This document shows, piece by piece, positions 17,840-59,065 of a DNA stretch of 64,000 nucleotides. Every line of letters begins with the position of its first letter. The first letter of the stretch is position 1. The notes below the pieces were generated by a model, which was not told the origin of the DNA, made no database searches, and worked only from the letters and a program-made list of their open reading frames with translations. The stretch spans positions 18,576 through 82,575 of the IMG/VR virus record IMGVR_UViG_3300028883_000005; one strand, given 5' to 3'. Position numbers and translations under genes: made by a program. This DNA comes from a virus.

Positions 17840-19013
17840 TCGGGAAGACCTGGTAAACCAGCTTAGAGAGAGAGCTCAGGAAAGCTACAAAAGCAAAGAT
17901 GAAGGAGGTAAATACGGAAAGTATTACCGATCCCCACCACTACCTGAATGGAAATGCTCTGAAGGTGAGCATGTGATTGACATCCTTCCTTTCTTTGCAG
18001 GTGAGAACTACCCCACCAAAAGCCATGCAAGTCAAGGAAAACCGGTGGACCCAGGTAAAATTCTTTACTGGCTGGATGTATGGATTCATTCAAAGATCGG
18101 CGTAAACGAAGATAACGTGGTTTGCCCTTCTATGAGCTACGGCAAGCGGTGTCCCATCTGTGAAGATGTGGCGGCGGAAAGCAAAAAGCCTGCGAATCTC
18201 AAGGACGAAGCTTTCATAAAAGACACCAAGGCAAAGCGCCGGTCTATGTATCTGATCGTTTGCAGGGATAGCGAATCCGAAGAGAACAAGGGCGTGCAGG
18301 TCTTCGAGGTAGCTCATTTCTATTTGGAAAAGCACATCTCTGCCCTGGCGAAGAAGCCCTTCGGTGGTGGATTTCGTTTGTTTTCGAATCCTTACAACGG
18401 CCAATCTGTTTACTTTTCCAAAAGTGGAACAGGGATGGGGCAGGAATGGTCCGGGTTTCAATTTCTTGATCGCGATTATGCCATCTCGGAAGAGCATCTG
18501 GATGTTGCGGCAGCTACTCCTCTGGCAGACTTCCTGATCCTTTTGGGTTACGAAGAGCTTTGGGAGAAATATTACGGAAAGCCCTTCGATGGAAGTTCTG
18601 CTAAGAGCCCCTCTGACTCTTCAAATCCTGACTACCAGCCCAAAACTAGGGCTCCCAAAGAGGATCCACCTGAGGAGGCTAAAGAGGCTACGACTAGACC
18701 AACTAGGGCTCCGAAAGAGGAACCTGCTAAAGAGGATCCGCCCTCTAGAACTACCAGAGCCCCGAAAGAAGATCCACCCTCTAGAGCCACCAGAGCTCCG
18801 AAAGAGGAACCCCCCGAAGAGGAACAACCTGTTCGGAGAACACGGAGACCCCTTCAAGAGGAACCTGCTGAAAAAGAACAGGAGTCTTCAGCCAAATGCC
18901 CTGGTGGTGGAGTATTTGGCAGAGACATTGACAAGCTCTCAGGATGCGGACCTTGTGAACTATGGGACGATTGCGCCATAGAAGCACAACGGCTAGAGCA
19001 AGAAGGTAAATAA
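17829..19013 (+). CDS. gp32-like single-stranded DNA-binding protein with repeat-rich C-terminal tail
   Basis: The 394-aa protein has a T4 gp32-like core: an early basic helix, YRSPPLPEWKC, and a zinc site NVVCPSMSYGKRCPICED (Cys-x7-Cys-x2-Cys). After residue 255 it becomes a low-complexity tail in which RAPKEDP/EEP units recur about five times, then VRRTRRP, then a Cys motif (CPGG-x-FGRD with CGPC and a final Cys). The acidic tail would recruit partners. Codon use is GC-rich in the core, suggesting high expression. It ends just before the structured RNA at 19018. Confidence 0.75.
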   Translation: MKFNREDLVNQLRERAQESYKSKDEGGKYGKYYRSPPLPEWKCSEGEHVIDILPFFAGENYPTKSHASQGKPVDPGKILYWLDVWIHSKIGVNEDNVVCPSMSYGKRCPICEDVAAESKKPANLKDEAFIKDTKAKRRSMYLIVCRDSESEENKGVQVFEVAHFYLEKHISALAKKPFGGGFRLFSNPYNGQSVYFSKSGTGMGQEWSGFQFLDRDYAISEEHLDVAAATPLADFLILLGYEELWEKYYGKPFDGSSAKSPSDSSNPDYQPKTRAPKEDPPEEAKEATTRPTRAPKEEPAKEDPPSRTTRAPKEDPPSRATRAPKEEPPEEEQPVRRTRRPLQEEPAEKEQESSAKCPGGGVFGRDIDKLSGCGPCELWDDCAIEAQRLEQEGK

Positions 19014-29366: not shown

Positions 29367-29702
29367 ATGACATCCATCGTTTGTTTTTTAGTGAGGGGGT
29401 TAGGCCATATTATAGGTGAGGACGGAGGAAAGGCCCACCACAAAGTTAATATTAGATATCCAGGTCTGGTGATACCAGTAAATTCCGAAGGCAGAGAGGC
29501 CTACTATCTGCAGTCTATTATACCTGGCTTTATGAAAGACCCCTCCACCATCGCACGATCCTTCAATGTACCTGCTGAGGATATAATTATGAAAGGAGAT
29601 ATAGATCCAGATATGGAAAATTTGTACATCTCATGGAAAGCAGAGCAAATCCGAAAATGGTCGGGTCTTATAATTTCAGGAGGTCCTAAGCGGGCACAGT
29701 AG
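29367..29702 (+). CDS. Protein of unknown function, last gene of the + strand block
   Basis: The 111-aa protein starts after TAGGAGG. It contains GLGHIIGEDGGKAHHKV near the N-terminus and no recognised family. Its last 17 bases overlap the convergent glycosyltransferase gene on the other strand, and no terminator hairpin separates the two blocks. Confidence 0.5.
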   Translation: MTSIVCFLVRGLGHIIGEDGGKAHHKVNIRYPGLVIPVNSEGREAYYLQSIIPGFMKDPSTIARSFNVPAEDIIMKGDIDPDMENLYISWKAEQIRKWSGLIISGGPKRAQ

Positions 29703-30636
29703 ATTCATCTATCAACCCTTTAGAGGCAGCTTTTTGCATCCATTCATTAATTGTCATCACTTGCCTAGATTCAATAAGCTGCCTCTGTTTCCACCCTTTC
29801 TTTAAAACATCATTCATAATATCATCTAGCACGTTTGGTCTACCTTTAGCGATATTCCTAAAAGATTTAAGAACCTCCACTCCACCAAAAAGATAATGAG
29901 CTAAAAATCTATTTCTAAGAGAATCATCGTAGTTACTACTATATCCTCTTTTTTCACCATGATGGGCGAGACTCCCTTTATTCCAAATCCATTTTTTCTT
30001 CCCCAAGACTGCCAGTGTGTAATTCATAAAGTGCTCTCCACCAGAGTAAATTCCGAACTCAGGATTCCACCCTCCTGTAAGATCATAAATAGATTTATGA
30101 ATCATCATACCACAAGTTGACATACAAGGCACCTCATAAGGAGTATCAGATTCTCTATACCCTGTAAATCTGTAATCAAAGAAAGCCCCTTTATCCAAGA
30201 GAAATTTGTAAATAAGTTTATGCGGTTCTAGAACCTTATAGTTAATAGGGAGATGAATAGTTCCATCTAATTCTTCCCAATTTTCTTTATAGTATTTAAA
30301 CATAGAATAAATAGAGTCTCTGGTAGGAACAACATGAGAATCACAAAAGAGTAGAAATTTTCCAGAGCTTTTACTAATGCCCATCCTTTTAGCGTTCCAA
30401 TGAGAAAGTTTGGTTTTGTACTCTACATATCTAAGCCAAGAACAAACACCAGCACCTGCTCTGACAGCCTCTCCGGATTTATCCTCAGATCTATCCACAT
30501 AGCCGTCGGCATAGTTATCTACAGCAATGATCTCAAAATCAACTCTTCCTAACAGCTCCTCTGCTATACTGCGAATTGTAAATATCACTTGAGGATACTC
30601 ATTCACGAATGGGATTATAATAGATAGTTCTGCCAT
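29686..30636 (-). CDS. GT2-family glycosyltransferase
   Basis: The 316-aa protein has a GT-A fold start (ELSIIIPFVNEYPQV), the nucleotide-sugar Asp region IIAVDNYADG and FCDSHVVP, where DSH replaces the DXD motif. GGWNPEFGIYSGGEHF fits the catalytic loop of GT2 enzymes. It stands apart from the main glycan operon, separated by repeat element copy B, and is the last - strand gene before the convergent junction. The acceptor is unknown. Confidence 0.8.
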   Translation of the reverse strand: MAELSIIIPFVNEYPQVIFTIRSIAEELLGRVDFEIIAVDNYADGYVDRSEDKSGEAVRAGAGVCSWLRYVEYKTKLSHWNAKRMGISKSSGKFLLFCDSHVVPTRDSIYSMFKYYKENWEELDGTIHLPINYKVLEPHKLIYKFLLDKGAFFDYRFTGYRESDTPYEVPCMSTCGMMIHKSIYDLTGGWNPEFGIYSGGEHFMNYTLAVLGKKKWIWNKGSLAHHGEKRGYSSNYDDSLRNRFLAHYLFGGVEVLKSFRNIAKGRPNVLDDIMNDVLKKGWKQRQLIESRQVMTINEWMQKAASKGLIDESTVPA

Positions 30637-30671
30637 TTCCTTTAGTCCTTATTTATTGTTTAATTTCACAA

Positions 30672-30750
30672 GCTTACAGTAAATTTTAAGACGGGCTCTA
30701 AGCATGAATTCTGCACGATTTTTAGTGTCTTAATGCATTAGTATGCATTA
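30672..30750. repeat. Dispersed repeat element, copy B
   Basis: GGGCTCTAAGC (30693-30703) and GAATTCTGCACGA (30706-30718) are followed after 13 bases by TAATGCAT-TAGT-ATGCATTA (30731-30750), a perfect 8-bp inverted repeat. On the - strand this reads as a leader 36-114 bases upstream of the GT2 gene at 30636. It occupies most of the gap between two glycan genes. Confidence 0.8.
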
Positions 30751-30759
30751 AATTTATAC

Positions 30760-31428
30760 CTATAAGCGATAACCATATTTATAAGCTACCTTCTTCAATT
30801 GAAGGGCTAGCCTTTTGTTTTCAGATTTCAGATCTTCAAAGGTTAATTCCGGATTAAATATTTTTCTTTTAGGGGTAGTGTGAACTTTTTGGCCTAGACT
30901 TTGTATTTTTTGATACATTTCTTCAGAATATTTTAGATTCACTCCCTTGCAGAACTTATTTACTTTACCTTTATATTTAAAATCCTCAACCTTAATTGTA
31001 TAATCAAAATTATAATTCTTTTTACATTCCCTATTCCAAATTATCCACCAAATTAAAACATAAGAAGGAGTTCCTGACAAGTGGTTGTATTGAGGAAAGC
31101 CTCTTCTAAAAATATCTAACCCAGATCTTTTTCGGGTTAAATCTATATTATACATCGAAGAGATAACCTTAACAGGATTCCTGACTAGATGAATATACTT
31201 CACATCATGACCTGCCATAATTTTATGGGTAGCTCTAGATCTATCTTTTTCACCTAAATACCAAGAACAGATGCCATTTTTGTTGAACCCTTCATGACCC
31301 ACCTTATAACCTAAAATCTCAAAAACCTTAGTCATATAAAGGGTTCCGCTTCTTCCGCACCCAACCACCACAAACTTTTTAACTTTAGGGTCTTTAGATA
31401 GCTTATTTAGATTAGGTATCATCCTCAT
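30760..31428 (-). CDS. Sulfotransferase-like protein
   Basis: The 222-aa protein has VVVGCGRSGT (about 20-29), the 5'-phosphosulfate loop of PAPS-dependent sulfotransferases, and YIHLVRNPVKVISSMYN (about 78-94), the 3'-phosphate binding motif. These enzymes transfer sulfate from PAPS to sugars or other acceptors. It is the last gene of the overlapped glycan operon, so a sulfated glycan is likely. It overlaps the upstream gene by ATGA. Phage sulfotransferases are uncommon. Confidence 0.72.
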   Translation of the reverse strand: MRMIPNLNKLSKDPKVKKFVVVGCGRSGTLYMTKVFEILGYKVGHEGFNKNGICSWYLGEKDRSRATHKIMAGHDVKYIHLVRNPVKVISSMYNIDLTRKRSGLDIFRRGFPQYNHLSGTPSYVLIWWIIWNRECKKNYNFDYTIKVEDFKYKGKVNKFCKGVNLKYSEEMYQKIQSLGQKVHTTPKRKIFNPELTFEDLKSENKRLALQLKKVAYKYGYRL

Positions 31429-32081
31429 GGTACCTTACTCATCTCCCTTCTGTATATTTCTTTCTCTTTGTTCATTAAATATCTAATTTCCATATTAGAT
31501 CTTAAGGTTTCCCCTACTTTATGAGTGATTGGATTATATAAATCTTTAAACCAAAAGTATTTATTCCTCTTGGTAAAGTTCCAAATCCAATCGTCTCCGC
31601 AAAAGAACTTTAAAGAGGACGGAATATGTGGTATTTTCTTCACCAAAGAGTTTCTAATCGTAAAAGCCCATCCTTCTCTTTTCTTCATTCCCTTAATCTT
31701 AACTTCAGGTGTTACGGTAGATAAAGCGGACTTTGAGGTGACATTAGGGCAAATAACCCCTGCTCTGGATCTTATATTAAAGCATTTTTCTATCTTATAG
31801 AAAAATAAAGGTGTGATTTCTATATCATCGTTCAAGATTGAAAGATGATTTCCTTCTTTACACTTTCTAAGTCCATAATTCCAAGCGGGGTTCACTCCTA
31901 CATTTTTCTTGGGTGTTACTATTTTAACAGGGTATTCATAAGCCCTAGAGAAATTTAAAGCTTTCTCTGAGTTATTAATTACAGTTACCCTATAAGGTAA
32001 GGTTTCGTTTTTGTTTATCTGGGACAGAACAGCTAGGACTAGGTCTTCATTCATAGTAGGTATTAGAACTTCTATGCTCAT
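31425..32081 (-). CDS. GT2-like glycosyltransferase
   Basis: The 218-aa protein starts IEVLIPTMNED and has TPKKNVGVNPAWNYG and LNDDIE, the typical GT2 acceptor/donor region with a DD-x-E version of the DXD motif. It is shorter than typical GT2 enzymes and may hold only the catalytic domain. Its start codon overlaps the stop of the upstream gene and its stop overlaps the sulfotransferase start. Confidence 0.72.
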   Translation of the reverse strand: MSIEVLIPTMNEDLVLAVLSQINKNETLPYRVTVINNSEKALNFSRAYEYPVKIVTPKKNVGVNPAWNYGLRKCKEGNHLSILNDDIEITPLFFYKIEKCFNIRSRAGVICPNVTSKSALSTVTPEVKIKGMKKREGWAFTIRNSLVKKIPHIPSSLKFFCGDDWIWNFTKRNKYFWFKDLYNPITHKVGETLRSNMEIRYLMNKEKEIYRREMSKVP

Positions 32082-32812
32082 TATATCTTTTCCCAGCAGG
32101 TGAAGTGTTGAGGGTTTCCAGACTTACGCCATCCATTTTCTTCCATCCATTTTCTTCCTATATCTTCTAAACAAGGAGGTGCCTCCTGGGGGTGGTAAAT
32201 TCCAAACCTCCATTGATTTAAATAATCACCCATCCATCTTCCTTTTATTTGTTTCTCAGGATTATGAACAGGATCTATTCTAGCTATAGCCCCTTTAGCA
32301 AAAGCTGTCCTGTTTAGAGAAGGATGACCACACCACCCTGCAGCACCTTTATCTGCTTGAGGGCACTCAAAAAACTTACCGTTCCATAAAAAGAAATGCT
32401 TCCAATTCTTTAAGTGTTCTGAAGTAGATCTAAATTTACTCAATCTCAGATGAGCTAGAGTTATATTATCCTCCATTATTTCAATCATTTCATTGAAATC
32501 TAGTTTTCTTTTTAAGAGCCAATCTTCTTCTAAATGAAATAAATAAGGAGCCCTAGCTAAATTCCATACGGTTAGGAAGGCTTTAGGAAAAAAAGCTCTA
32601 CTAGGGCGAGTGGCTTTGATCTCTTTGAAATATTTAGAACATACCCTAATAACATCCTTATAGCGGTTATTTTCAGATCCTACAGGGTCTATATTAATTA
32701 CCAATCTTAGATCACCTGAAAACCCTGAGAATAGGTTTTCAAAAAAAGACTCTAAAGTTCTATCGATTAGCTCTGGTCTCCAGGTGGCGGTCATAGTGAC
32801 ATCTACTTTCAT
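32081..32812 (-). CDS. Glycosyltransferase, GT-A type
   Basis: The 243-aa protein has a GT-A-like start (VDVTMTATWRPELIDRTLESF) and LFHLEEDWLL, a metal-binding acidic motif equivalent to DXD. The second half is aromatic-rich. Overlaps at both ends couple it to the glycan operon. The sugar and acceptor cannot be read from sequence. Confidence 0.65.
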   Translation of the reverse strand: MKVDVTMTATWRPELIDRTLESFFENLFSGFSGDLRLVINIDPVGSENNRYKDVIRVCSKYFKEIKATRPSRAFFPKAFLTVWNLARAPYLFHLEEDWLLKRKLDFNEMIEIMEDNITLAHLRLSKFRSTSEHLKNWKHFFLWNGKFFECPQADKGAAGWCGHPSLNRTAFAKGAIARIDPVHNPEKQIKGRWMGDYLNQWRFGIYHPQEAPPCLEDIGRKWMEENGWRKSGNPQHFTCWEKI

Positions 32813-33396
32813 TTCTTCACCTTTTCAAATATTGCTGCATTTTTATGGAAAGCCTCTATTCCTGGCTTAAGAGCCCAAGGACTTAAATACTTTTTGAATA
32901 AATTTGTAAGAACAGGTCTGTACTCATATCCTTTATTTCTAAACTTTTCTATCCAGTACTCCAAAGGTTGGCAATTTACATGATAATGGCCCTTTTGACC
33001 AGGAGGTGCGGCGGAAAGGATTAGTTTATCAGACAATTTAATCAAATTGTCTACTAAAATATCAGAGTACTCCTTCTCTATATGCTCCATTACTTCTAAG
33101 CAAGAGCAGAGGTCCATGCGGAGGAGGCCTTCTAGAGGCTCTCTCAGGTCTCGTATTAGAATATTATCTGTCATTCTAAATTCCCAACAATGAGTGCTGC
33201 CTTCAATTCCCCAAGAATAGTGACCTCTGCGGCCCATTTCAAACACCAAATCTCCAGTAGCACACCCTACATCTATATAAGAGAAAATATCTGGGTATAA
33301 TTTCTCGAAGGCGTCTGCTACATGGAGTGCTCTCCAATTGAACTTATACCTTCTGGTAAAGAAAGCCCGTTTATAAATATCCACCAAAGGCTTCAT
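32809..33396 (-). CDS. SAM-dependent methyltransferase
   Basis: The 195-aa class I methyltransferase has motif I YIDVGCATGDLVFEM, an acidic strand end GIEGS, and CLEVMEHIEKE as motif IV region. In a glycan operon it probably methylates a sugar, perhaps as a chain-terminating cap. It starts 26 bases inside the upstream glycosyltransferase gene and overlaps the next by four. Confidence 0.75.
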   Translation of the reverse strand: MKPLVDIYKRAFFTRRYKFNWRALHVADAFEKLYPDIFSYIDVGCATGDLVFEMGRRGHYSWGIEGSTHCWEFRMTDNILIRDLREPLEGLLRMDLCSCLEVMEHIEKEYSDILVDNLIKLSDKLILSAAPPGQKGHYHVNCQPLEYWIEKFRNKGYEYRPVLTNLFKKYLSPWALKPGIEAFHKNAAIFEKVKK

Positions 33397-34492
33397 TGCT
33401 ATACCTCTCTTTGATAAAATCCAGAGAAGGTGCTGATTCTCCGAAACTAGAAAACAATCTGCCCATCGTAGGAATTAAATAATCCGACCCTGATGTCTTA
33501 TTATACCAACTGGTGGCTTTGTTACGATCTTTAGGACTGTAATGCTTTAGAATGTCTCTAAACAAACGGGCTACGGAACCGAAATCGTCTTTATTTTTGG
33601 GAACGGTACAATACTTTCCATAAGTGATATAAGGAGAATGATAAGCAGGTGTTCCTATGATTAATTGACAGCCGCATCTTAAGGCTTCAATAGGTCCTCT
33701 ATCGTTTTGGCCTGAAGTGCCTAAATGAACGAACACTTTAGAAGAGTTGAGAATTACATTTAGATCTGATCTAGGAACCATACCAGGCATGTCAACACCA
33801 AGGTCTTTGGCTAAACCCAAAATTTTGTTTGTTTGGGTGCTATGACGAACAGCCCCAGGCATTATACATTTAGGAATTTTACCGTATATTTTTTTGTACT
33901 CCTCTAGAGCTCGAATTGTTCTCCACTGACCTTTTCTATCGTGTATAAAACTAGCACCTATGCAAAAGTCATATATAGGATTAGATTCTGGTATGAATCT
34001 AAATATTTCTTCGTGAACTGGTTTAGAGAAAGGGAACCAGAGTCTGTTTTCTGTATCTATTCTCAGTTCCAAATCTAAATCGTCTAAAATAGCATCCCAC
34101 CAGGGCCATCTTTGTCTTCCTGTGTTAGCTGCATAAAGAACTAACCAGTGCTTTCCCTTCTTAGAGGCTAACCAATCATGCCAACCTCTAAAGCCCCCTC
34201 GAACAAACAAAACATCTCCTTTTCTTAGAACTTTATCTACTTCGGAGATGTGGGGCACTACAAACCCTAAATTACCATTGAGTTTGAATCTTCCGCATCC
34301 TCTAGAAGATTCTATTATCAAAAGCATATCTTTAATGAATCCTTTAGCCTTCATTTCTTTTAGCATCCAGTAAAGGCCTTCGGACTCTAAGCCACCGTTG
34401 TCTAGATACTTATTTTGGGCAGTAGCTTTGGGATTCCAAGTAGGAATATCATTAGTTCCACCGGTGGTCATAAACAAAAACACTACTCTCAT
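33371..34492 (-). CDS. GT-B fold glycosyltransferase
   Basis: The 373-aa protein has an N-terminal MRVVFLFMTTGGT Rossmann start and a C-terminal GPIEALRCGCQLIIGTP, the GT4 donor-binding Glu motif. ATG 34492 overlaps the upstream stop (ATGA) with AAAGGA eight bases before it; an ATG at 34501 is too close to that site. Substrate unknown. Confidence 0.75.
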   Translation of the reverse strand: MRVVFLFMTTGGTNDIPTWNPKATAQNKYLDNGGLESEGLYWMLKEMKAKGFIKDMLLIIESSRGCGRFKLNGNLGFVVPHISEVDKVLRKGDVLFVRGGFRGWHDWLASKKGKHWLVLYAANTGRQRWPWWDAILDDLDLELRIDTENRLWFPFSKPVHEEIFRFIPESNPIYDFCIGASFIHDRKGQWRTIRALEEYKKIYGKIPKCIMPGAVRHSTQTNKILGLAKDLGVDMPGMVPRSDLNVILNSSKVFVHLGTSGQNDRGPIEALRCGCQLIIGTPAYHSPYITYGKYCTVPKNKDDFGSVARLFRDILKHYSPKDRNKATSWYNKTSGSDYLIPTMGRLFSSFGESAPSLDFIKERYSNEAFGGYL

Positions 34493-35751
34493 TCTACCCA
34501 TCCTTTAGATTCTTCAAATAAAGGTTTATACTCTTTAAGGTACAACCTATCCCAATTATACTTTTGACGAATGAAAGATTTAGATCTGATAGATTTATCC
34601 GTGAGCATCTGAGAAACAACATCTCTAGCTATCGCAGGATAGTACTCGTCTCCCATTGTATTGTCATAGTTTCGATTAAACGACCCAAAATCAAAAAATA
34701 AAGCGTTTCCTCCAGATATCTCTTCGAGCATCTGTAAAGATTTATTTAATACTAAAAGAACACCTCCTGACAGGCAAGCTTCTGGGAGTACCAATCCAAA
34801 AGTCTCTTCCCTAGTTAGAAATACAAATAAATTACTTAGAGAGAATAACTCTCTAACCATACGTTTAGGTATGCCTATTTCATATTTTGGAGGGTCAAAA
34901 TCTGAGGTAAAAACAACTTCTTCATTTGGTATCAGACCTCTGCATTTAGCTTCCCATTTAAACTTTTTTATATCTTCTTTCCTAGTGAGAACCGTGGCCC
35001 ATTGATTTGCAACCACTAAACAAACAGATAAACCTAGAGACTTAATAGCCCCGAATATCTGCAGAGTCTCTGATAGTCTCTTTGCGGATAATCTATCGCA
35101 AGAAGCGGGGTATATTTGAACAACATCCGATTGCATTACTTTAGGATAGGCAGATATAAACTTTCTGGTGGGATCGCTAAAGTCAAACCATGTTCTAGGG
35201 TCTTTTATATGATGTATACATCTAGTATCATCAAAAGTACCTCTATATTGTTTAGCTACATGGTTTCTATCGGTATTGTTAGGATATACAATTTTATGAT
35301 TAGGTCTTAAAATTGAGATTAAATGCCAATCTAAGTTTCTAGAGGGGATACTATGCACCCAATGAAGCCATCTGGTAGAGGGTAGATTAGCAGATGCTTT
35401 TCTTACCCCTAAACAATAAGGTAAGAACCATCCTTGAAACATTAAATCATGAGTTATAACAATATCTATTTCATTTTCTTTGATAAAAGATTCTAAAACA
35501 ACACCTGTTTTAATTGCTTCCTTTTGGTGCTCTTCTGTGATTTGTGAACAGCTGGAGTAATCTCTTAGATGGAAAAAAGGAAGGATTTTATGCGAGTCTA
35601 TATCCTCACCGTGGTAGTTCTCATTTACTACGAGAAACACTTCGTGACCATAAGAGGATAACATTTCTATTTGATCGGAAACAATGCCTGTTAAGGAATT
35701 ACCAGGATTAAACTCCATGAAATTTGTTAAGATTGCTATTTTTTCTTTCAT
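34489..35751 (-). CDS. GT4-family glycosyltransferase
   Basis: First gene of the glycan operon, 420 aa. The N-terminal part has GNSLTGIVSDQIEMLSSYGH, typical of GT4 enzymes, and the C-terminal part has REETFGLVLPEACLSGG, with both donor-contact Glu residues. ATG 35751 sits after a short leader that contains the repeat element copy C hairpin; frames extending upstream run through that element. Likely starts or extends the glycan. Confidence 0.78.
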   Translation of the reverse strand: MKEKIAILTNFMEFNPGNSLTGIVSDQIEMLSSYGHEVFLVVNENYHGEDIDSHKILPFFHLRDYSSCSQITEEHQKEAIKTGVVLESFIKENEIDIVITHDLMFQGWFLPYCLGVRKASANLPSTRWLHWVHSIPSRNLDWHLISILRPNHKIVYPNNTDRNHVAKQYRGTFDDTRCIHHIKDPRTWFDFSDPTRKFISAYPKVMQSDVVQIYPASCDRLSAKRLSETLQIFGAIKSLGLSVCLVVANQWATVLTRKEDIKKFKWEAKCRGLIPNEEVVFTSDFDPPKYEIGIPKRMVRELFSLSNLFVFLTREETFGLVLPEACLSGGVLLVLNKSLQMLEEISGGNALFFDFGSFNRNYDNTMGDEYYPAIARDVVSQMLTDKSIRSKSFIRQKYNWDRLYLKEYKPLFEESKGWVE

Positions 35752-35786
35752 AAGGCCCTCAAGGCTAATGATTGTTTTAGCAGTTT

Positions 35787-35864
35787 GCTTAGAGCCCTTT
35801 TTAAGACGGGCTCTAAGCATGAATTCTGCACGATCTTTTTGCTACTAATGCACTTGTATGCAGC
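35787..35864. repeat. Dispersed repeat element, copy C, with perfect 11-bp hairpin
   Basis: GCTTAGAGCCC (35787-35797) and GGGCTCTAAGC (35808-35818) form a perfect 11-bp stem with a 10-base loop. GAATTCTGCACGA follows at 35821-35833, then 13 bases, then AATGCACTTGTATGCAGC (35847-35864), a decayed version of the palindrome in copies A and B. On the - strand it forms the leader of the glycan operon that starts at 35751. Confidence 0.8.
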
Positions 35865-54106: not shown

Positions 54107-54751
54107 TTATGGAGCTGTGGTAGTGGTTGTTGTGCTGGTCGTAGTTGTAGAGGTCAGAGTGGAACCGTCGTCCCAAATAAAGCAACCGAGGGGCATACCA
54201 TCCCAAATCACATGACCTCCGGATACCTCGCTGTCTGCCCTCTTGGCTTCAATGCTGATAGGCACGGCTGCCGGCTCCTCCGCCTGGAAGTCCAGCTCCT
54301 GCTGGGCAACAATCTGACATCTCGGGAAAATGATGTACAGTTTGTTGGTTCCATCAGGAAAGGTGTATACAGCCTCCATCCTTAGATAAACCGGTGCCGC
54401 CATTGTACCGATAGCCAGACGAGCATAGTGGTTTTCAGAGTAACTCGTAGGATCTAGACCACGAGCAATCGCCATGTTGTAGGGTGTGATTTCCTTGAAA
54501 GCACATTCCAACATAGCAGTTTCACGAAGCGGGAACACCGCATCTTCCATCATCGGAAACCCAGACTCTAGCTTGTAAAAGTCAACAGAGCCTGTGTATT
54601 TGGTATTGGCCAGGGCACCGAGGTTGTTGGTGGTCGGTAAAATGGGGTTTATCTGACCAATGTAGGTTGAAGCGAGACCCACCCTGATCTGTGCGAGACC
54701 CAATGCAACAGCCGTGGTATCTCTGGTTACTGGACCTGTCCTTTGTGTCAT
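54107..54751 (-). CDS. Major tail protein with Thr-rich C-terminal tail
   Basis: The 214-aa protein lies next to the chaperone, the standard place for the tail tube subunit, and its composition (GSVDFYKLESGFPM, beta-rich, QEELDF-like strands) fits. The final 18 residues (54110-54163) are nearly all Thr and Ser and end TTTAP, an extension shared with the capsid and a joining protein. GC-rich codon use agrees with high expression. GGAGGTG precedes the ATG. Confidence 0.78.
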   Translation of the reverse strand: MTQRTGPVTRDTTAVALGLAQIRVGLASTYIGQINPILPTTNNLGALANTKYTGSVDFYKLESGFPMMEDAVFPLRETAMLECAFKEITPYNMAIARGLDPTSYSENHYARLAIGTMAAPVYLRMEAVYTFPDGTNKLYIIFPRCQIVAQQELDFQAEEPAAVPISIEAKRADSEVSGGHVIWDGMPLGCFIWDDGSTLTSTTTTSTTTTTTAP

Positions 54752-54762
54752 AAGATCACCTC

Positions 54763-55038
54763 CTATTCAGATTTGTGTGTTTTGCCGGAATTCTGTTCGA
54801 CTTGGTCGATTGACTGGGGCAACAAAGTAAACACATTCCAATGATCAGGGTGTTCTTTTCTACAGGAGTCCCTGATACATCTCATTCTAGCATTACCTAT
54901 AATTTCGATTTCTACTGGTGGCTCCTTTCTGGCGTAGGACTTGCCAAACTTAAATATTAAAGTTCCATTGCTCTTTCGCTCTATGAGCTTTTTTCCGCAT
55001 TTAGAACATCGAAGCATCATTTTTTTGGGCCTACTCAT
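54763..55038 (-). CDS. Small zinc-ribbon protein
   Basis: The 91-aa protein has RCSKCGKKLIE near the start and a second pair RCIRDSC in the middle, like Com-type zinc ribbons of phage Mu. Com proteins regulate translation, but here it lies between tail genes. Roughly 25 basic residues suggest nucleic acid contact. Overlaps the upstream gene by four bases. Confidence 0.6.
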   Translation of the reverse strand: MSRPKKMMLRCSKCGKKLIERKSNGTLIFKFGKSYARKEPPVEIEIIGNARMRCIRDSCRKEHPDHWNVFTLLPQSIDQVEQNSGKTHKSE

Positions 55039-55508
55039 ATTTTACTCACAAACCGTAGTCTCACCAAGACCACTTTAAATTTAGTTCCTTCTGGAGCAAC
55101 AGACTCCCCTAATTCATCTATGCTAAACACTATGAGAGACCCAATCTTCACCCAAGCAGAGGTTGGGCTGCTCTGATAGAAAGGTATTCTTTTGGTTCCG
55201 TCTCCATTACTGGAAGTGTCAGTAAGATAACCTAAGAGCTTATCTCCTAACTGAGCGAGTTTAAAACCTTCATTATCTTCCTTAGTGCAACAAATTATCC
55301 TTATTAGGGCTTCAGAGGGCACTCCTCTAGTGATTGGTCCAAATTCTACCCTATACCATTTATCTAAGGTTCTACCTGATATGTTAGGAGTAGTAAGACG
55401 AGAATCAAAAAGAATAGGAACCCCTTCAGCAGTCTCTAAGTTGTCCACAAGGAACTTCTTAACACTGTCCCTAAAATTAGATTCTCTCGCCGTTGCATCT
55501 AAAGCCAT
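55035..55508 (-). CDS. Putative tail terminator protein
   Basis: The 157-aa protein has the size and position (between head-tail joining genes and the major tail gene) of tail terminators such as lambda gpU. A DNLETAEGVPILFDSRL segment and WYRVEFGPI fit the pattern of these alpha/beta proteins. The call is mainly positional. Confidence 0.55.
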   Translation of the reverse strand: MALDATARESNFRDSVKKFLVDNLETAEGVPILFDSRLTTPNISGRTLDKWYRVEFGPITRGVPSEALIRIICCTKEDNEGFKLAQLGDKLLGYLTDTSSNGDGTKRIPFYQSSPTSAWVKIGSLIVFSIDELGESVAPEGTKFKVVLVRLRFVSKI

Positions 55509-55714
55509 TAGGAAATAGACCTCATTTCTTCGCTGAGTCTCTGTAGATTAGGAAAAAATTTGGTGGTTACATACTCTCCAGCTTTTTTAAGTCTATCAGA
55601 ACCTAAAAAATCTAAAGAGCAGCTATCCAAAAAATCTAGAAGCATCTCTACTTCCTCTTGAGACATCTCGATTTCTGTATGTAATTGCCTAGGGTAGATC
55701 CTCTTTACTCTCAT
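55508..55714 (-). CDS. Small helical protein of unknown function
   Basis: The 68-aa protein is charged and helical (EIEMSQEEVEMLLDFL). It overlaps its neighbours by one and four bases and lies between two head-tail joining genes. No family recognised. Confidence 0.5.
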   Translation of the reverse strand: MRVKRIYPRQLHTEIEMSQEEVEMLLDFLDSCSLDFLGSDRLKKAGEYVTTKFFPNLQRLSEEMRSIS

Positions 55715-56244
55715 CTCCAGTTCCTCTTTATTATTGTCCTAGATTCTTTCAGCCTCTTTAAGGCTCCGGATTTTTTATATTCTTCCAAAGTAGGACCAAA
55801 AACAGGTCTAGCGGGGTGAACTTGTCCTTCGAATGACCCTCCGTATTCCATTATCCTGCCGTATGCTCCTATGTAAGTGGGCTTGCCTAAACCTGAATAG
55901 TTCTTACCTCCACTATCCAAAATTCCTGCAGGAATGCCTGATACCCACCCAAATTTTCCTTTTTTCCACATAGAAAGTGCCTGAAGTAAATCACCACTTA
56001 AAATCCAAAACCTAGATTCAGGACCTCTCTTAGATTTCCATTTTCCGTACTTTTCACTATATGGTTCATAACCAGCAGAGTATCTCTGGTTAACTATATT
56101 CAAGTAAACGAGCTTTAAATAATCTACACCTAACTGATACCCTATATTTTTAGCTCTGACATAGACGGCAGATCTAACTTTAGCTATTGCGGACAATACC
56201 TTTTTTAGATCTTTAGCAACAAAAATGATTTTTATAGTAACCAT
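55711..56244 (-). CDS. Head-tail joining protein, HK97 gp10/Mu gpG-like
   Basis: The 177-aa basic protein has a helical N-terminal part and YGRIMEYGGSFEGQVHPARPVFGPTLEEY, which fits the IEYGGS...PARPF pattern of gp10-like and gpG-like head-tail connection proteins. Position agrees. It starts directly after the Thr-tailed protein at 56245. Confidence 0.65.
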   Translation of the reverse strand: MVTIKIIFVAKDLKKVLSAIAKVRSAVYVRAKNIGYQLGVDYLKLVYLNIVNQRYSAGYEPYSEKYGKWKSKRGPESRFWILSGDLLQALSMWKKGKFGWVSGIPAGILDSGGKNYSGLGKPTYIGAYGRIMEYGGSFEGQVHPARPVFGPTLEEYKKSGALKRLKESRTIIKRNWR

Positions 56245-56934
56245 CTAAGGAGCTGTTGTTGTCGTAGTGGTGCTGGTTGTTGTCGTAGTGGTGCTGGTTG
56301 TTGTCGTAGTGGTAGTTAAAGTACTGTTATCTAAACTTAATTCTAAAACATCCAGCCCTTCATATCTTTTCTTTTTGACAGATTCAACCAGATAAAAAGC
56401 CCCATCTAGGCGAACAGTGTCTTTGGGTAGGACACCATAGGAGGAGGGAATGTACATCTCTAAAATTTCGGAAGGGATCGGTCCTGTTTCGCTGTCCTCA
56501 TTAAGCTCGTTACCAAATAAAGGTGAAGTTACACAAACATAAATATCTTCGGCCACGATAGTGTAATGAGTTTCAGCTAAATAAGTGTCCTCATTCCTAT
56601 CTTGGTAGGATCGAACTACAGAAACAGGCTCGTTGGCTTTGTATAAAACTAAAGAATGCCTATAAATTTCATTTTCAAAAGAGTCTGGTGTACTATGAGC
56701 TACTAGGTACTGAACACCAGTACCTGTAATAGTTACAACATCTCCAGATTTAATATCTAAATCATAAGCAACTTGACCTTCTAAAAAGAACTCCCGGATA
56801 AAAGGCTTGGTTACTTGGGCATTACTTTTAAGCCAAACATAGTTGGTAGCACTTTGTAAAACTCCATCCCTATGCAAACTGAAAAGCAAACCTGTCTCTT
56901 CTATTGCGGATTTTAGATCTAATCCCAGAGACAT
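56245..56934 (-). CDS. Head-tail joining protein with Thr-rich C-terminal tail
   Basis: The 229-aa protein begins with a helical part followed by beta strands (GDVVTITGTGVQYLVAHS). The last 26 residues (56248-56325) are almost purely Thr with a few Ser and end TTTTTTAP. The tail is encoded by a 21-base tandem repeat. Location between capsid and tail genes suggests a head completion or connector protein. The body is not a family I can name. Confidence 0.6.
   Translation of the reverse strand: MSLGLDLKSAIEETGLLFSLHRDGVLQSATNYVWLKSNAQVTKPFIREFFLEGQVAYDLDIKSGDVVTITGTGVQYLVAHSTPDSFENEIYRHSLVLYKANEPVSVVRSYQDRNEDTYLAETHYTIVAEDIYVCVTSPLFGNELNEDSETGPIPSEILEMYIPSSYGVLPKDTVRLDGAFYLVESVKKKRYEGLDVLELSLDNSTLTTTTTTTSTTTTTTSTTTTTTAP
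56255..56313 (+). repeat. 21-base tandem repeat coding a Thr-rich tail
   Basis: The unit starting GTTGTTGTCGTAGTGGTGCTG occurs at 56255-56275, again at 56276-56296 and partly at 56297-56313. Read on the - strand it encodes Thr and Ser. Perfect unit identity implies recent expansion. Confidence 0.85.
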
Positions 56935-56936
56935 GA

Positions 56937-57386
56937 CTACTCGCTTTCTTTAGGATGGTGCAAAACCAACTGATCCTCGCTGTATGTTCTATCTCTACCT
57001 AATCCATCCGAAGCAAAACCTGCATCCACCTTAGTTCCAAAGAACTTATAAGTACTCACATCAGCAAAAAGCACAGGATTCTCTTCCTTTGCCTCCTCGA
57101 ACTTTTTATCTAGATCTTTTATCAGAGACCTATAATGATCAAAACGCTGATTGAGGTTAACTTGTTCGAACTTAAACTTATGAGCACTCTCGCTCATAAG
57201 TGCAAAAAACAAATGTCTGAGGGCCCTCTGCTTCAACCAGAAAAGCTTATCTCCGGTTTGCGGCAAAGTCCATCCCAGTTCCTCCTCGGCGGAATCTACT
57301 GCTTCTGTGTAGTCCGCCGGGTCGAGATAACTGGAGAGAGACTTAACTTTTACTGGAAGCCAAGCTACCATTTCAGATTGATTCAT
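56937..57386 (-). CDS. Putative head completion protein
   Basis: The 149-aa acidic/helical protein contains DYTEAVDSAEEELGW and FEQVNLNQRFDHYRSLI, a pattern common in gp6-like or similar adaptor proteins between capsid and tail. Assignment is by position. It begins right after the stop of the next upstream gene. Confidence 0.5.
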   Translation of the reverse strand: MNQSEMVAWLPVKVKSLSSYLDPADYTEAVDSAEEELGWTLPQTGDKLFWLKQRALRHLFFALMSESAHKFKFEQVNLNQRFDHYRSLIKDLDKKFEEAKEENPVLFADVSTYKFFGTKVDAGFASDGLGRDRTYSEDQLVLHHPKESE

Positions 57387-57671
57387 TTAGCCCTCAACCC
57401 TTCGAGCTCTTCTCAAAGGCTCCTCTTGCTTAGGTGGTTTCTCTTCGGCAGGCAGGGTGGTTTCCACCGCTGCATCCCAAACAGACAGATCCTCGTCTGA
57501 AACTGGAGGCGGGGGTGATTGATGTTTAGAATACTCTAAAACATCAACCACATCCCCGCGGTAAACTTCAGTTAAGATATCTTCAGGTATGGGGGCAGTA
57601 TACACACCAACAGTATACTCTTTGGACCCTGCCTTTAGATGCTTTTTAAGCAATAGTTTTTCGATATGCAT
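57387..57671 (-). CDS. Small protein with RRARR C-terminus
   Basis: ATG 57671 follows GGAGG and gives 94 aa; the frame from 57710 would overlap the capsid stop. The second half is Pro/Glu-rich and the end is EEPLRRARRVEG, like the motif in the SSB tail and RecA N-terminus. It lies immediately after the capsid gene. Function unknown. Confidence 0.5.
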   Translation of the reverse strand: MHIEKLLLKKHLKAGSKEYTVGVYTAPIPEDILTEVYRGDVVDVLEYSKHQSPPPPVSDEDLSVWDAAVETTLPAEEKPPKQEEPLRRARRVEG

Positions 57672-57709
57672 ATCGATTGCCTCCAGTCGATTATTACGAC
57701 ACCGCCCCA

Positions 57710-59065
57710 TTATGGAGCTGTGGTCGTAGAGGTGGTGCTGGTTGTCGTGGTGCTGGTTGTTGTAGTGGTACTGGTGGCGGACTCACCGGTGGTCGCCGTG
57801 ACATCGATGGTATAAATAGCATCCGTATGATAAAGGACAGGAAGCCCCTTATCTTGGACTCTAACGTAGATGCCTTCAGGGTCCCACACCTCTTTCTTGT
57901 CCACATACATGCCGTAATGACGGCCGAGGCCAAAAGGAGCCTGCATATATCTGGCAATTGGCTTTCCGTCTACTTTGTCCGTAAACATCACGAACTTGTC
58001 GTCCGGCATAAAGTACCTGGTCATGGACACATAATCTTCACCTGCCTGATAGCTGCTGGTGAATGGGTACTCGATCTGAATACGATCGTTTGCCTTGTCC
58101 ACAGAGAGGACTATACGCTCTTCAAAAGAGCCGTCCGTCTGATCCACGATTTTGATCGTAGAGTAAGCCTCAAAATCGCTGGCATCATTCACTGTGAGCC
58201 AGGTGGTGCTTCCGGCGGTGACCGCCGCGGTCAGCCAAGCTTTGACCTCATACATCTCATCGTATACGATGATTTCGTCGATGTCAAAAAGCTGGCCCAG
58301 GGTTCTGGCATTAACCAACGCCAAAGGATCTACCCCAGAACTACCAAATAGACTGCCATCACCGAAACGATCGCGGTACAGAAGTGCCTGCAGGGTGGTG
58401 TCTTTGCCAATCATATCCAAAACCTTGCTGTTACACATGGCCTTGGTAACATGGCTACCCACCGCCTCCGAGATTTTGCGCTTTCCGGTTTTGATATCTC
58501 CGAGGATGTCTTTGCTTCCGCCCGTATCCCAGTAATAGGCAGAGGCAAGACTCACCTTATGGGTGGACGGAATACCGTAATCCAGAGTGAACTTGACGCC
58601 GCCTTTCAGCTGGTAAGTCAAGGACCCCGTAAACAGCATTTGACAGAACATCCACTCTTTCCGGCGATTGGCACGATTGGAAATGTCGGACATGGCATCC
58701 GAAAGGATATCCATCGCTGTGTGGTGCGAGGCGTCTGTTCCGGGCTTACGGAGATTATTCAGGAACTCCTCATCGAAGTACCTTTTCTCCTTCCAGTAAG
58801 CCGCCTCGGCTGTGTGCTCAGCGATGCCATACCCTGCGGACAGTGGTGCTGGATGGCCAGGAGGAACGAACGGTGTCATTCCACGGCCGCCGCGTTGGCT
58901 TTCCCACTTGATAGATGAAGAATCCGCGTTCCTTTTAGGAAAGAGATTAGACATCACCAAATTCGGCGGTGCTTTGAAGGTTTCCACAAACTCCTGAAGA
59001 ACCTCCAACCTTAGGGCAGGAATGTCCGATTGTCCTCGAGACATTTTGTATTTTGATCGATTCAT
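57710..59065 (-). CDS. Major capsid protein, lambda gpE-like, with Thr-rich tail
   Basis: The 451-aa protein resembles the lambda gpE family of HK97-fold capsid proteins: an N-terminal LRLEVLQEFVETFKAPPNLV, a Trp-rich E-loop region, and the FGLGRHYGMYVDKKEVWDPEG-type C-terminal segment. The final 20 residues (57713-57772) are Thr/Ser-rich and end TTTAP, absent from lambda gpE. Codons are GC-rich, as expected for the most abundant protein. GGGAGGTG precedes ATG 59065. The gpD-like gene lies upstream. Confidence 0.82.
   Translation of the reverse strand: MNRSKYKMSRGQSDIPALRLEVLQEFVETFKAPPNLVMSNLFPKRNADSSSIKWESQRGGRGMTPFVPPGHPAPLSAGYGIAEHTAEAAYWKEKRYFDEEFLNNLRKPGTDASHHTAMDILSDAMSDISNRANRRKEWMFCQMLFTGSLTYQLKGGVKFTLDYGIPSTHKVSLASAYYWDTGGSKDILGDIKTGKRKISEAVGSHVTKAMCNSKVLDMIGKDTTLQALLYRDRFGDGSLFGSSGVDPLALVNARTLGQLFDIDEIIVYDEMYEVKAWLTAAVTAGSTTWLTVNDASDFEAYSTIKIVDQTDGSFEERIVLSVDKANDRIQIEYPFTSSYQAGEDYVSMTRYFMPDDKFVMFTDKVDGKPIARYMQAPFGLGRHYGMYVDKKEVWDPEGIYVRVQDKGLPVLYHTDAIYTIDVTATTGESATSTTTTTSTTTTSTTSTTTAP

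What the first reader, a model, noticed from the sequence alone, without database searches (positions are those of the whole stretch)
54107..59065. Same Thr-rich mucin-like tail on capsid, joining and major tail proteins
Three unrelated virion proteins end in 18-26 residues of Thr and Ser closing with TTTAP. The DNA before two of the stop codons is nearly identical and one tail is a 21-base tandem repeat, pointing to copying of a tail cassette. Thr-rich tails on the most abundant surface proteins are ideal O-glycosylation sites for the operon at 29.7-35.8 kb. A sugar-coated virion could evade antibodies, receptors or defence, or bind mucus.
Basis: partly seen in the sequence, partly recalled or inferred. 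Interest (0 to 1): 0.78.

Follow-up and report, generated by a model that had tools for sequence, protein, structure and literature searches.

The report
Phage mucin-like tails with sugar-adding enzymes
A family of uncultured phages has grown threonine/serine-rich "mucin-like" tails on exactly three particle proteins, always together, and carries a linked gene cluster with an enzyme that looks like the animal enzymes that start mucin sugar chains, so these phages probably wear a mucin-like sugar coat.

Summary
Capsid (MCP), head-tail joining and major tail (MTP) proteins end in Thr/Ser tracts closing TTTAP, the only such tracts in the window. In relatives the tails are all-or-none: no discordant locus among 68 scored for two or more genes, never on 11 other structural proteins, one origin (63 capsids, support 100/100), no loss. 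The glycosyltransferase operon follows the tails: 10 of 11 tailed records over 40 kb, 0 of 10 tailless. It also occurs in apparently unrelated phages, where Thr/Ser tails reappear on the head decoration protein and major tail protein. The operon's GT-A enzyme (29686-30636) models as a polypeptide GalNAc-transferase (29 best PDB entries, Z 24-29; next family 19.8) with invariant DxH, GGE and C-His; DxH marks polypeptide Ser/Thr O-glycosyltransferases (GT27/GT60). Best explanation: phage-encoded cytoplasmic mucin-type O-glycosylation of the virion surface. "Cassette copying" is only weakly supported. The role of the sugar is unknown and nothing is shown biochemically. Virion glycosylation at capsid and tail-tube C-termini is known in mycobacteriophages, so this is a new variant of a known kind.

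The parts
57710..59065 (-). major capsid protein (Phage_cap_E/HK97-like), 451 aa, with C-terminal T/S tail
   Evidence: Pfam PF03864 E 3.3e-29; phrog_29 E 7e-50
57713..57781 (-). T/S tail of the capsid protein: SATSTTTTTSTTTTSTTSTTTAP
   Evidence: tail in 76 of 91 MCP ORFs of relatives (some contigs fetched twice)
56245..56934 (-). head-tail joining (stopper-position) protein, 229 aa, with T/S tail
   Evidence: synteny; no family hit
56248..56316 (-). T/S tail of the joining protein, DNA a 21-base tandem repeat (56255-56313)
   Evidence: tail in 59 of 73 ORFs of relatives
54107..54751 (-). major tail (tube) protein, 214 aa, with T/S tail
   Evidence: phrog_476 E 0.009 plus synteny; tail in 42 of 47 ORFs of relatives
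54110..54154 (-). core of the T/S tail of the major tail protein (TSTTTTSTTTTTTAP)
29686..30636 (-). GTA: GT-A glycosyltransferase, polypeptide-GalNAc-transferase-like; proposed initiating enzyme
   Evidence: PF00535 E 2.5e-12; best PDB fold matches all ppGalNAc-T; DxH, GGE, C-His invariant in 19 of 19
30760..31428 (-). operon gene, 222 aa, weak sulfotransferase-like matches below cut-off
   Evidence: Sulfotransfer_3 E 0.018
31425..32081 (-). second GT2 glycosyltransferase, 218 aa
   Evidence: PF00535 E 1.3e-7
32081..32812 (-). operon gene, 243 aa, conserved with GTA and GTB in most operon-bearing phages, no family
32809..33396 (-). methyltransferase-like protein, 195 aa
   Evidence: Methyltransf_23 E 5e-4, under cut-off; syntenic orthologs
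33371..34501 (-). GT4-like glycosyltransferase, 376 aa
   Evidence: ortholog in G002 matches PF00534 E 1.6e-5
34489..35820 (-). GTB: GT4-like glycosyltransferase, 443 aa, marker of the tailed clade
   Evidence: phrog_2170 E 1.3e-7; found in 12 of 18 tailed and 0 of 9 tailless records searched

Best explanation
The tails are unstructured acceptor peptides for a phage-encoded, cytoplasmic, mucin-type O-glycosylation system. Proposed steps: (1) GTA, a polypeptide-GalNAc-transferase-like GT-A enzyme, puts a first HexNAc (GalNAc or GlcNAc, from the host UDP-sugar pool) on Thr/Ser of the tails; (2) the other operon glycosyltransferases (GTB, the 376-aa GT4-like enzyme, the second GT2 and perhaps the 243-aa protein) lengthen it and the methyltransferase-like gene caps it; (3) capsid, neck and tail tube carry clustered O-glycans on their outer faces, giving a sugar brush over the particle. 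Shown here: the tails, their all-or-none single origin, their linkage to this operon inside and outside the family, and the predicted fold and catalytic motifs of GTA. Inferred: that transfer happens, the sugar identity and order of steps, outward exposure of the tails, and any role (shield or adhesion).
For: T/S tails on MCP, joining and MTP only; 0 of 624 ORFs of 11 other structural orthologs. No discordant locus among 68 scored for two or more genes; single origin, 63 MCPs, 100/100. GTB in 12 records, all tailed, 0 of 9 tailless; GTA in 9 tailed virus records, no tailless one, and 0 of 23 tailless virus records; over 40 kb 10/11 against 0/10, Fisher P 3e-5. Contigs found by GTA alone, in apparently unrelated phages, again carry T/S tails or tracts beside the operon; in G061 and G082 the tails are on the head decoration protein (phrog_49) and the MTP (phrog_807), in G040 on the MTP. 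Matched control: 45 loci with a different GT cluster in the same phage family have no T/S run in 694 kb. GTA: best 50 Foldseek and best 29 VIA-align entries all ppGalNAc-T, Z 24-29 against 19.8 for the next family; sequence profile E 2e-9; DxH/GGE/C-His 19 of 19 and no xED Asp; DxH replaces DxD in GT27 and GT60, which share polypeptide Ser/Thr O-glycosylation (PMC7185993). Virions assemble in the cytosol, so soluble nucleotide-sugar enzymes suffice (established knowledge).
Against: No mass spectrometry or enzyme assay; the phage is uncultured and its host unknown. Within the family the tail/operon link is one evolutionary event (pseudo-replication). GTA lacks the ricin-like lectin domain of animal GalNAc-Ts and the Trp before GGE. 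T7-A-P tails in other phage families often have no detected GT2 (24 of 36) and rarely GTB (2 of 36). Some operon genes are unassigned, no nucleotide-sugar synthesis gene was identified, and the GTs could instead modify DNA or host surface glycans.
Confidence: 0.78

Rival explanations
1. The tails are non-glycosylated disordered brushes (hydration, solubility, anti-aggregation or direct carbohydrate/mucus adhesion), and the operon modifies something else such as host O-antigen or phage DNA.
For: Poly-Thr tails occur in other aquatic phages without a detected GT2 (24 of 36 contigs). Phage glycosyltransferases can serve DNA modification or serotype conversion (PMC12619734).
Against: This operon and the tails go together within the family and again in unrelated phages; GTA belongs by fold and motif with polypeptide O-glycosyltransferases.
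Confidence: 0.13
2. The tails are by-products of DNA behaviour: a repeat or recombination cassette spread by slippage and gene conversion among gene ends.
For: 21-base tandem repeat; slightly longer shared DNA within genomes (10.96 nt) than between genomes (9.54) or after synonymous shuffling (10.22); very variable tail lengths.
Against: Only the same three of 14 orthologs in every genome, no loss in 63 MCPs; all four Thr codons used and neighbours repeat less than chance, z -3.4. Selection acts on the amino acids.
Confidence: 0.05
3. The tails are linkers left after loss of a C-terminal domain (such as Ig-like), as found on many phage major tail and capsid proteins.
For: In G061, G082 and G040 the tail stands where phrog_807 MTPs have an Ig-like domain; same classes of carrier protein.
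Against: Tailless relatives of the window's family end exactly at the junction with no domain; simultaneous presence on three proteins and retention imply a function of the tract itself.
Confidence: 0.04

Closest known systems
Virion glycosylation of mycobacteriophages (Freeman et al. 2023, as cited in PMC12619734; Corndog, cluster O, in PMC4351075)
   Same: Glycans reported at the C-termini of capsid and tail-tube subunits; phage-encoded glycosyltransferases and an O-methyltransferase.
   Different: No mucin-like tail: Che8 MCP ends FNKTGS and MTP EQYSDGS. GTA and GTB have no close counterpart in 50,697 phage records (one 20% match, none). The operon lies after the tail/fibre genes, not between portal and protease.
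Mucin-type O-glycosylation of animals and protists (polypeptide GalNAc-transferases, CAZy GT27)
   Same: Predicted fold, DxH metal motif, C-His, GGE motif, Thr/Ser-rich unstructured acceptors.
   Different: 13-17% identity; no lectin domain; cytosolic and phage-borne; donor sugar unknown.
Ig-like domains on phage capsid, decoration and major tail proteins
   Same: Accessory C-terminal displays on the same classes of surface protein.
   Different: Low-complexity T/S tract instead of a folded domain; linked to a glycosyltransferase operon.
Streptococcus mutans Pgf system acting on the Thr-rich Cnm adhesin (from memory; weak NCBIfam PgfS match)
   Same: GT2-type enzyme plus Thr-rich repeat acceptor.
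   Different: PgfS match far under cut-off (19 against 500 bits); a surface adhesin, not a virion.

Membership tests
Polypeptide GalNAc-transferase (GT27) | GT-A catalytic domain closest to solved ppGalNAc-Ts | tested here: met
   model pLDDT 92.7; Z 24-29 over 275-294 of 316 residues, next family Z 19.8; profile E 2e-9
Polypeptide GalNAc-transferase (GT27) | DxH metal motif instead of DxD | tested here: met
   D99 and H101 in 19 of 19 homologs; DxH replacement described for GT27 and GT60
Polypeptide GalNAc-transferase (GT27) | third metal ligand, a C-terminal-side His | tested here: met
   H225 in 19 of 19, aligned with the ppGalNAc-T His
Polypeptide GalNAc-transferase (GT27) | WGGE(N) Gal/GalNAc-T motif | tested here: inconclusive
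   GGE 19 of 19, next residue N in 13; preceding Trp present in only 1 of 19
Polypeptide GalNAc-transferase (GT27) | C-terminal ricin-like lectin domain | tested here: not met
   the 316 residues are all taken up by the catalytic fold
Polypeptide GalNAc-transferase (GT27) | transfer of GalNAc to Thr/Ser of a peptide | not testable with these tools
   needs an enzyme assay
Glycosylated-virion phages (mycobacteriophage type) | phage-encoded glycosyltransferases linked to virion genes | tested here: met
   operon downstream of the tail/fibre genes, same strand
Glycosylated-virion phages (mycobacteriophage type) | glycan on capsid and tail-tube C-termini | not testable with these tools
   needs intact mass or glycoproteomics
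Glycosylated-virion phages (mycobacteriophage type) | homologous glycosyltransferases | tested here: not met
   GTA one 20% match, GTB none, among 50,697 phage records
[quoted passage not shown]
   tails are T/S low complexity; no Pfam domain on MTP or joining protein

The most novel reading that the evidence does not exclude
A complete, mobile, phage-encoded mucin-type O-glycosylation system: a prokaryotic-virus polypeptide HexNAc-transferase of GT27/GT60 type plus elongating and capping enzymes, acquired together with Thr/Ser acceptor tails on every main surface layer of the virion, and passed between unrelated phage lineages that target it to their own surface proteins.
Probability: 0.6. 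Interest if true: 0.92.

Novelty: new variant of a known kind. Interest (0 to 1): 0.84.

Why it matters
It would show that phages, like animal mucins, coat themselves with clustered O-glycans made by a GalNAc-transferase-type enzyme acting in the bacterial cytosol. It offers an enzyme and a simple natural acceptor tag ((T/S)nAP) for O-glycosylation in laboratory E. coli, a sequence signature for glycosylated virions in metagenomes, and a clean evolutionary contrast (tailed clade with this operon, tailless relatives with another GT cluster next to the joining gene) for asking what virion sugar is for.

Tried and rejected
Exact 32-base repeat search in IMG/VR: nothing. MCP search in GTDB genomes gave no host for the tailed clade: single query none; the profile found a tailless relative in a Melioribacter MAG, one in a Flavobacteriaceae MAG and a fragment. 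GTA profile in 296 genomes of that phylum: nothing at E 1e-30, with no positive control. Named phages have only distant MCPs, about 31% identity at most. Cassette copying tested and found weak. GTB fold search: GT4-like matches only, poor superposition, no clue to its acceptor. A poly-Ala C-tail control scan gave too few contigs (8) for a baseline. Literature: no paper on Thr-rich tails of phage virion proteins was found in the open library; the Freeman paper itself is not held. Presence of any GT2 (PF00535) does not separate tailed from tailless phages, since some tailless ones carry their own GT2; the specific GTA/GTB families do.
Full report
1. What is there. The window is positions 18576-82575 of an 82,575-base IMG/VR virus record. 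On the minus strand it holds a siphovirus-type structural module: terminase, portal, protease, a 226-aa protein, MCP (57710-59065), adaptor, joining protein (56245-56934), gp10-like, terminator, MTP (54107-54751), chaperones, tape measure, tail tip. MCP, joining protein and MTP end in Thr/Ser tracts closing TTTAP, and no other reading frame in the window has such a tract. The joining tail is a perfect 21-base tandem repeat.

2. It is conserved and all-or-none. An MCP search and then a profile search found 25 and 204 relatives in IMG/VR, of which 80 were kept in the second. In these, tails sit on 76 of 91 MCP, 59 of 73 joining and 42 of 47 MTP ORFs, and on none of 624 ORFs of 11 other structural proteins (a dozen or so contigs were fetched twice, so these are loci, not phages). 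Per locus the states of the three genes never disagree: of 68 loci scored for two or more of the genes, 57 are tailed throughout and 11 tailless throughout; the joining ORF of L117 that scored tailless is a truncated match. In tailless relatives the proteins stop where the tail would begin (joining ...EDTR, MCP ...YILDVA, MTP ...GKIVWS). On a maximum-likelihood tree of 78 distinct MCP cores the tailed side is one group of 63 (100/100) with a single change of state. So three tails most likely arose together once and have been kept while length and sequence drifted (10-72 residues in 28 distinct genomes).

3. Selection is on the amino acids. In 84 tails all four Thr codons are used (ACT 0.20, ACC 0.35, ACA 0.27, ACG 0.17) and neighbouring Thr codons are identical less often than expected (0.216 against 0.269, z -3.4). 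This argues against triplet slippage as the cause. DNA stretches shared among the three tails of one genome are only slightly longer than between genomes or after synonymous shuffling (10.96, 9.54, 10.22 nt), and the shuffle also breaks repeats inside a tail, so copying between genes is possible but not shown. For the window the 15 nt shared before the MCP and MTP stops has P 0.046.

4. The operon goes with the tails. Most genes at 29686-35820 have syntenic orthologs in the other large tailed records (28-53% identity by BLASTP) and none in the tailless outgroups. GTB (alignment A2) was found in 12 of 27 records, all tailed, 0 of 9 tailless. GTA (A3) was found in nine virus records, all tailed; the tenth match in that search is a weak generic GT2 in the Melioribacter genome. 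With the deeper profile A4, GTA is absent from 23 tailless virus records. Among records over 40 kb: 10 of 11 tailed have GTA or GTB, 0 of 10 tailless have GTA (Fisher P 3e-5); the exception G001 and the shorter tailed contigs end before the place of the operon. This is one evolutionary event, so the P value overstates independence; for most tailless records GTB was looked for only by BLASTP on the fetched stretch.

5. Independent cases. Contigs found by GTA alone include phages with no detected kinship to the window's MCP. G040 (95 kb) has seven proteins with T/S C-tails and G044 three; G045, G047, G048 and G049 have T/S tracts too; only the 16.7-kb fragment G043, with GTA but no GTB, has none. 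From the other side, a scan for the rare T7-A-P-stop pattern (71 stretches in the whole collection) gave two contigs with GTB, G061 and G082. There the tail is on the head decoration protein (phrog_49) just upstream of a tailless MCP, and on the MTP (phrog_807, 'major tail protein with Ig-like domain', matching only the tube part), as also in G040. So different phages put the tract on whichever proteins form the outer layer. Of the 36 T7-A-P contigs tested, PF00535 was detected in 12 and GTB in 2, so simple poly-Thr tails in other families cannot be taken as glycosylated.

6. A matched control. Four tailless members of the same family examined in detail carry a different cluster directly after the joining gene: a 664-718-aa protein with GT4 and GT9 domains, in G029 followed by GT2, aminotransferase, radical-SAM and others. 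All 45 loci found with that protein have it right after the joining gene, and none has any T/S run in 694 kb, against 17 of 21 GTA-found loci in 357 kb. Having some glycosyltransferase cluster is therefore not what brings tails; this operon is.

7. The enzyme. GTA was modelled from 19 homologs (pLDDT 92.7). The best 50 Foldseek matches in the PDB are all polypeptide GalNAc-transferases. VIA-align puts 29 entries of that family at Z 24-29 over 275-294 of 316 residues, then drops to 19.8. The sequence profile agrees (E 2e-9). The metal motif is DxH (D99, H101), the C-His is H225 and GGE is 199-201, all invariant in 19 of 19; the residue after GGE is never Asp, as expected for a retaining enzyme. 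A published analysis states that DxH replaces DxD in GT27 and GT60, which share polypeptide Ser/Thr O-glycosylation (PMC7185993; also PMC4202792, and PMC9996832). GalNAc-Ts prefer Thr to Ser (PMC9996832); the tails hold 1100 Thr to 358 Ser. GTA lacks the lectin domain and the Trp of WGGE, so it is a relative that probably works like a GalNAc-T, not a shown member of GT27.

8. Reading. Most likely the three tails are acceptors for sequential cytoplasmic O-glycosylation started by GTA and extended by the other enzymes, giving a sugar-coated particle. Glycans at the C-termini of capsid and tail tube are already reported for mycobacteriophages (cited in PMC12619734), but Che8 has no such tails and the enzymes here have no close counterpart in 50,697 phage records. 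The function of the coat (protection or adhesion) is open.

9. Weak points. No biochemistry; host unknown; tail exposure inferred from the classes of carrier protein; joining protein named by synteny; GTA as first-step enzyme inferred from fold and motifs; several contigs are fragments.

Noticed in passing
L284:10001-20500 (record G029:44724-55229); also L285-L328: Tailless relatives carry another glycosylation cluster (664-718-aa GT4+GT9 fusion, in G029 with GT2, DegT aminotransferase, radical SAM) always directly after the joining gene: an alternative virion-modification system?
   Followed up: partly
L019:5699-7380 (G008:55634-57823): A 730-aa, largely Thr/Ser, mucin-like ORF sits between the joining gene and the gp10-like gene, the same place where tailless relatives have their GT cluster.
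   Followed up: no
L017:5752 and L018:5016: A fourth protein, between portal and protease genes, has a T/S tail (about 100 residues in L017), seen in these two contigs only.
   Followed up: no
L182, L190, L197, L206, L216 and others: Unrelated aquatic phages have proteins of about 380 aa ending in T7-A-P (phrog_15060, unknown function), often without a detected GT2.
   Followed up: partly
30760-31428: Operon gene with weak sulfotransferase-like matches under cut-off; if real, the glycan could be sulfated.
   Followed up: no
L024:14056-14967, L026:12760-13677, L141 major tail gene: Deep tailless outgroups have major tail proteins of about 300 aa, some 100 longer than in the family; the extra part has no Pfam domain.
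   Followed up: partly
18729-18805: 36-base direct repeat, 2.1 copies, in the non-structural half of the window.
   Followed up: no
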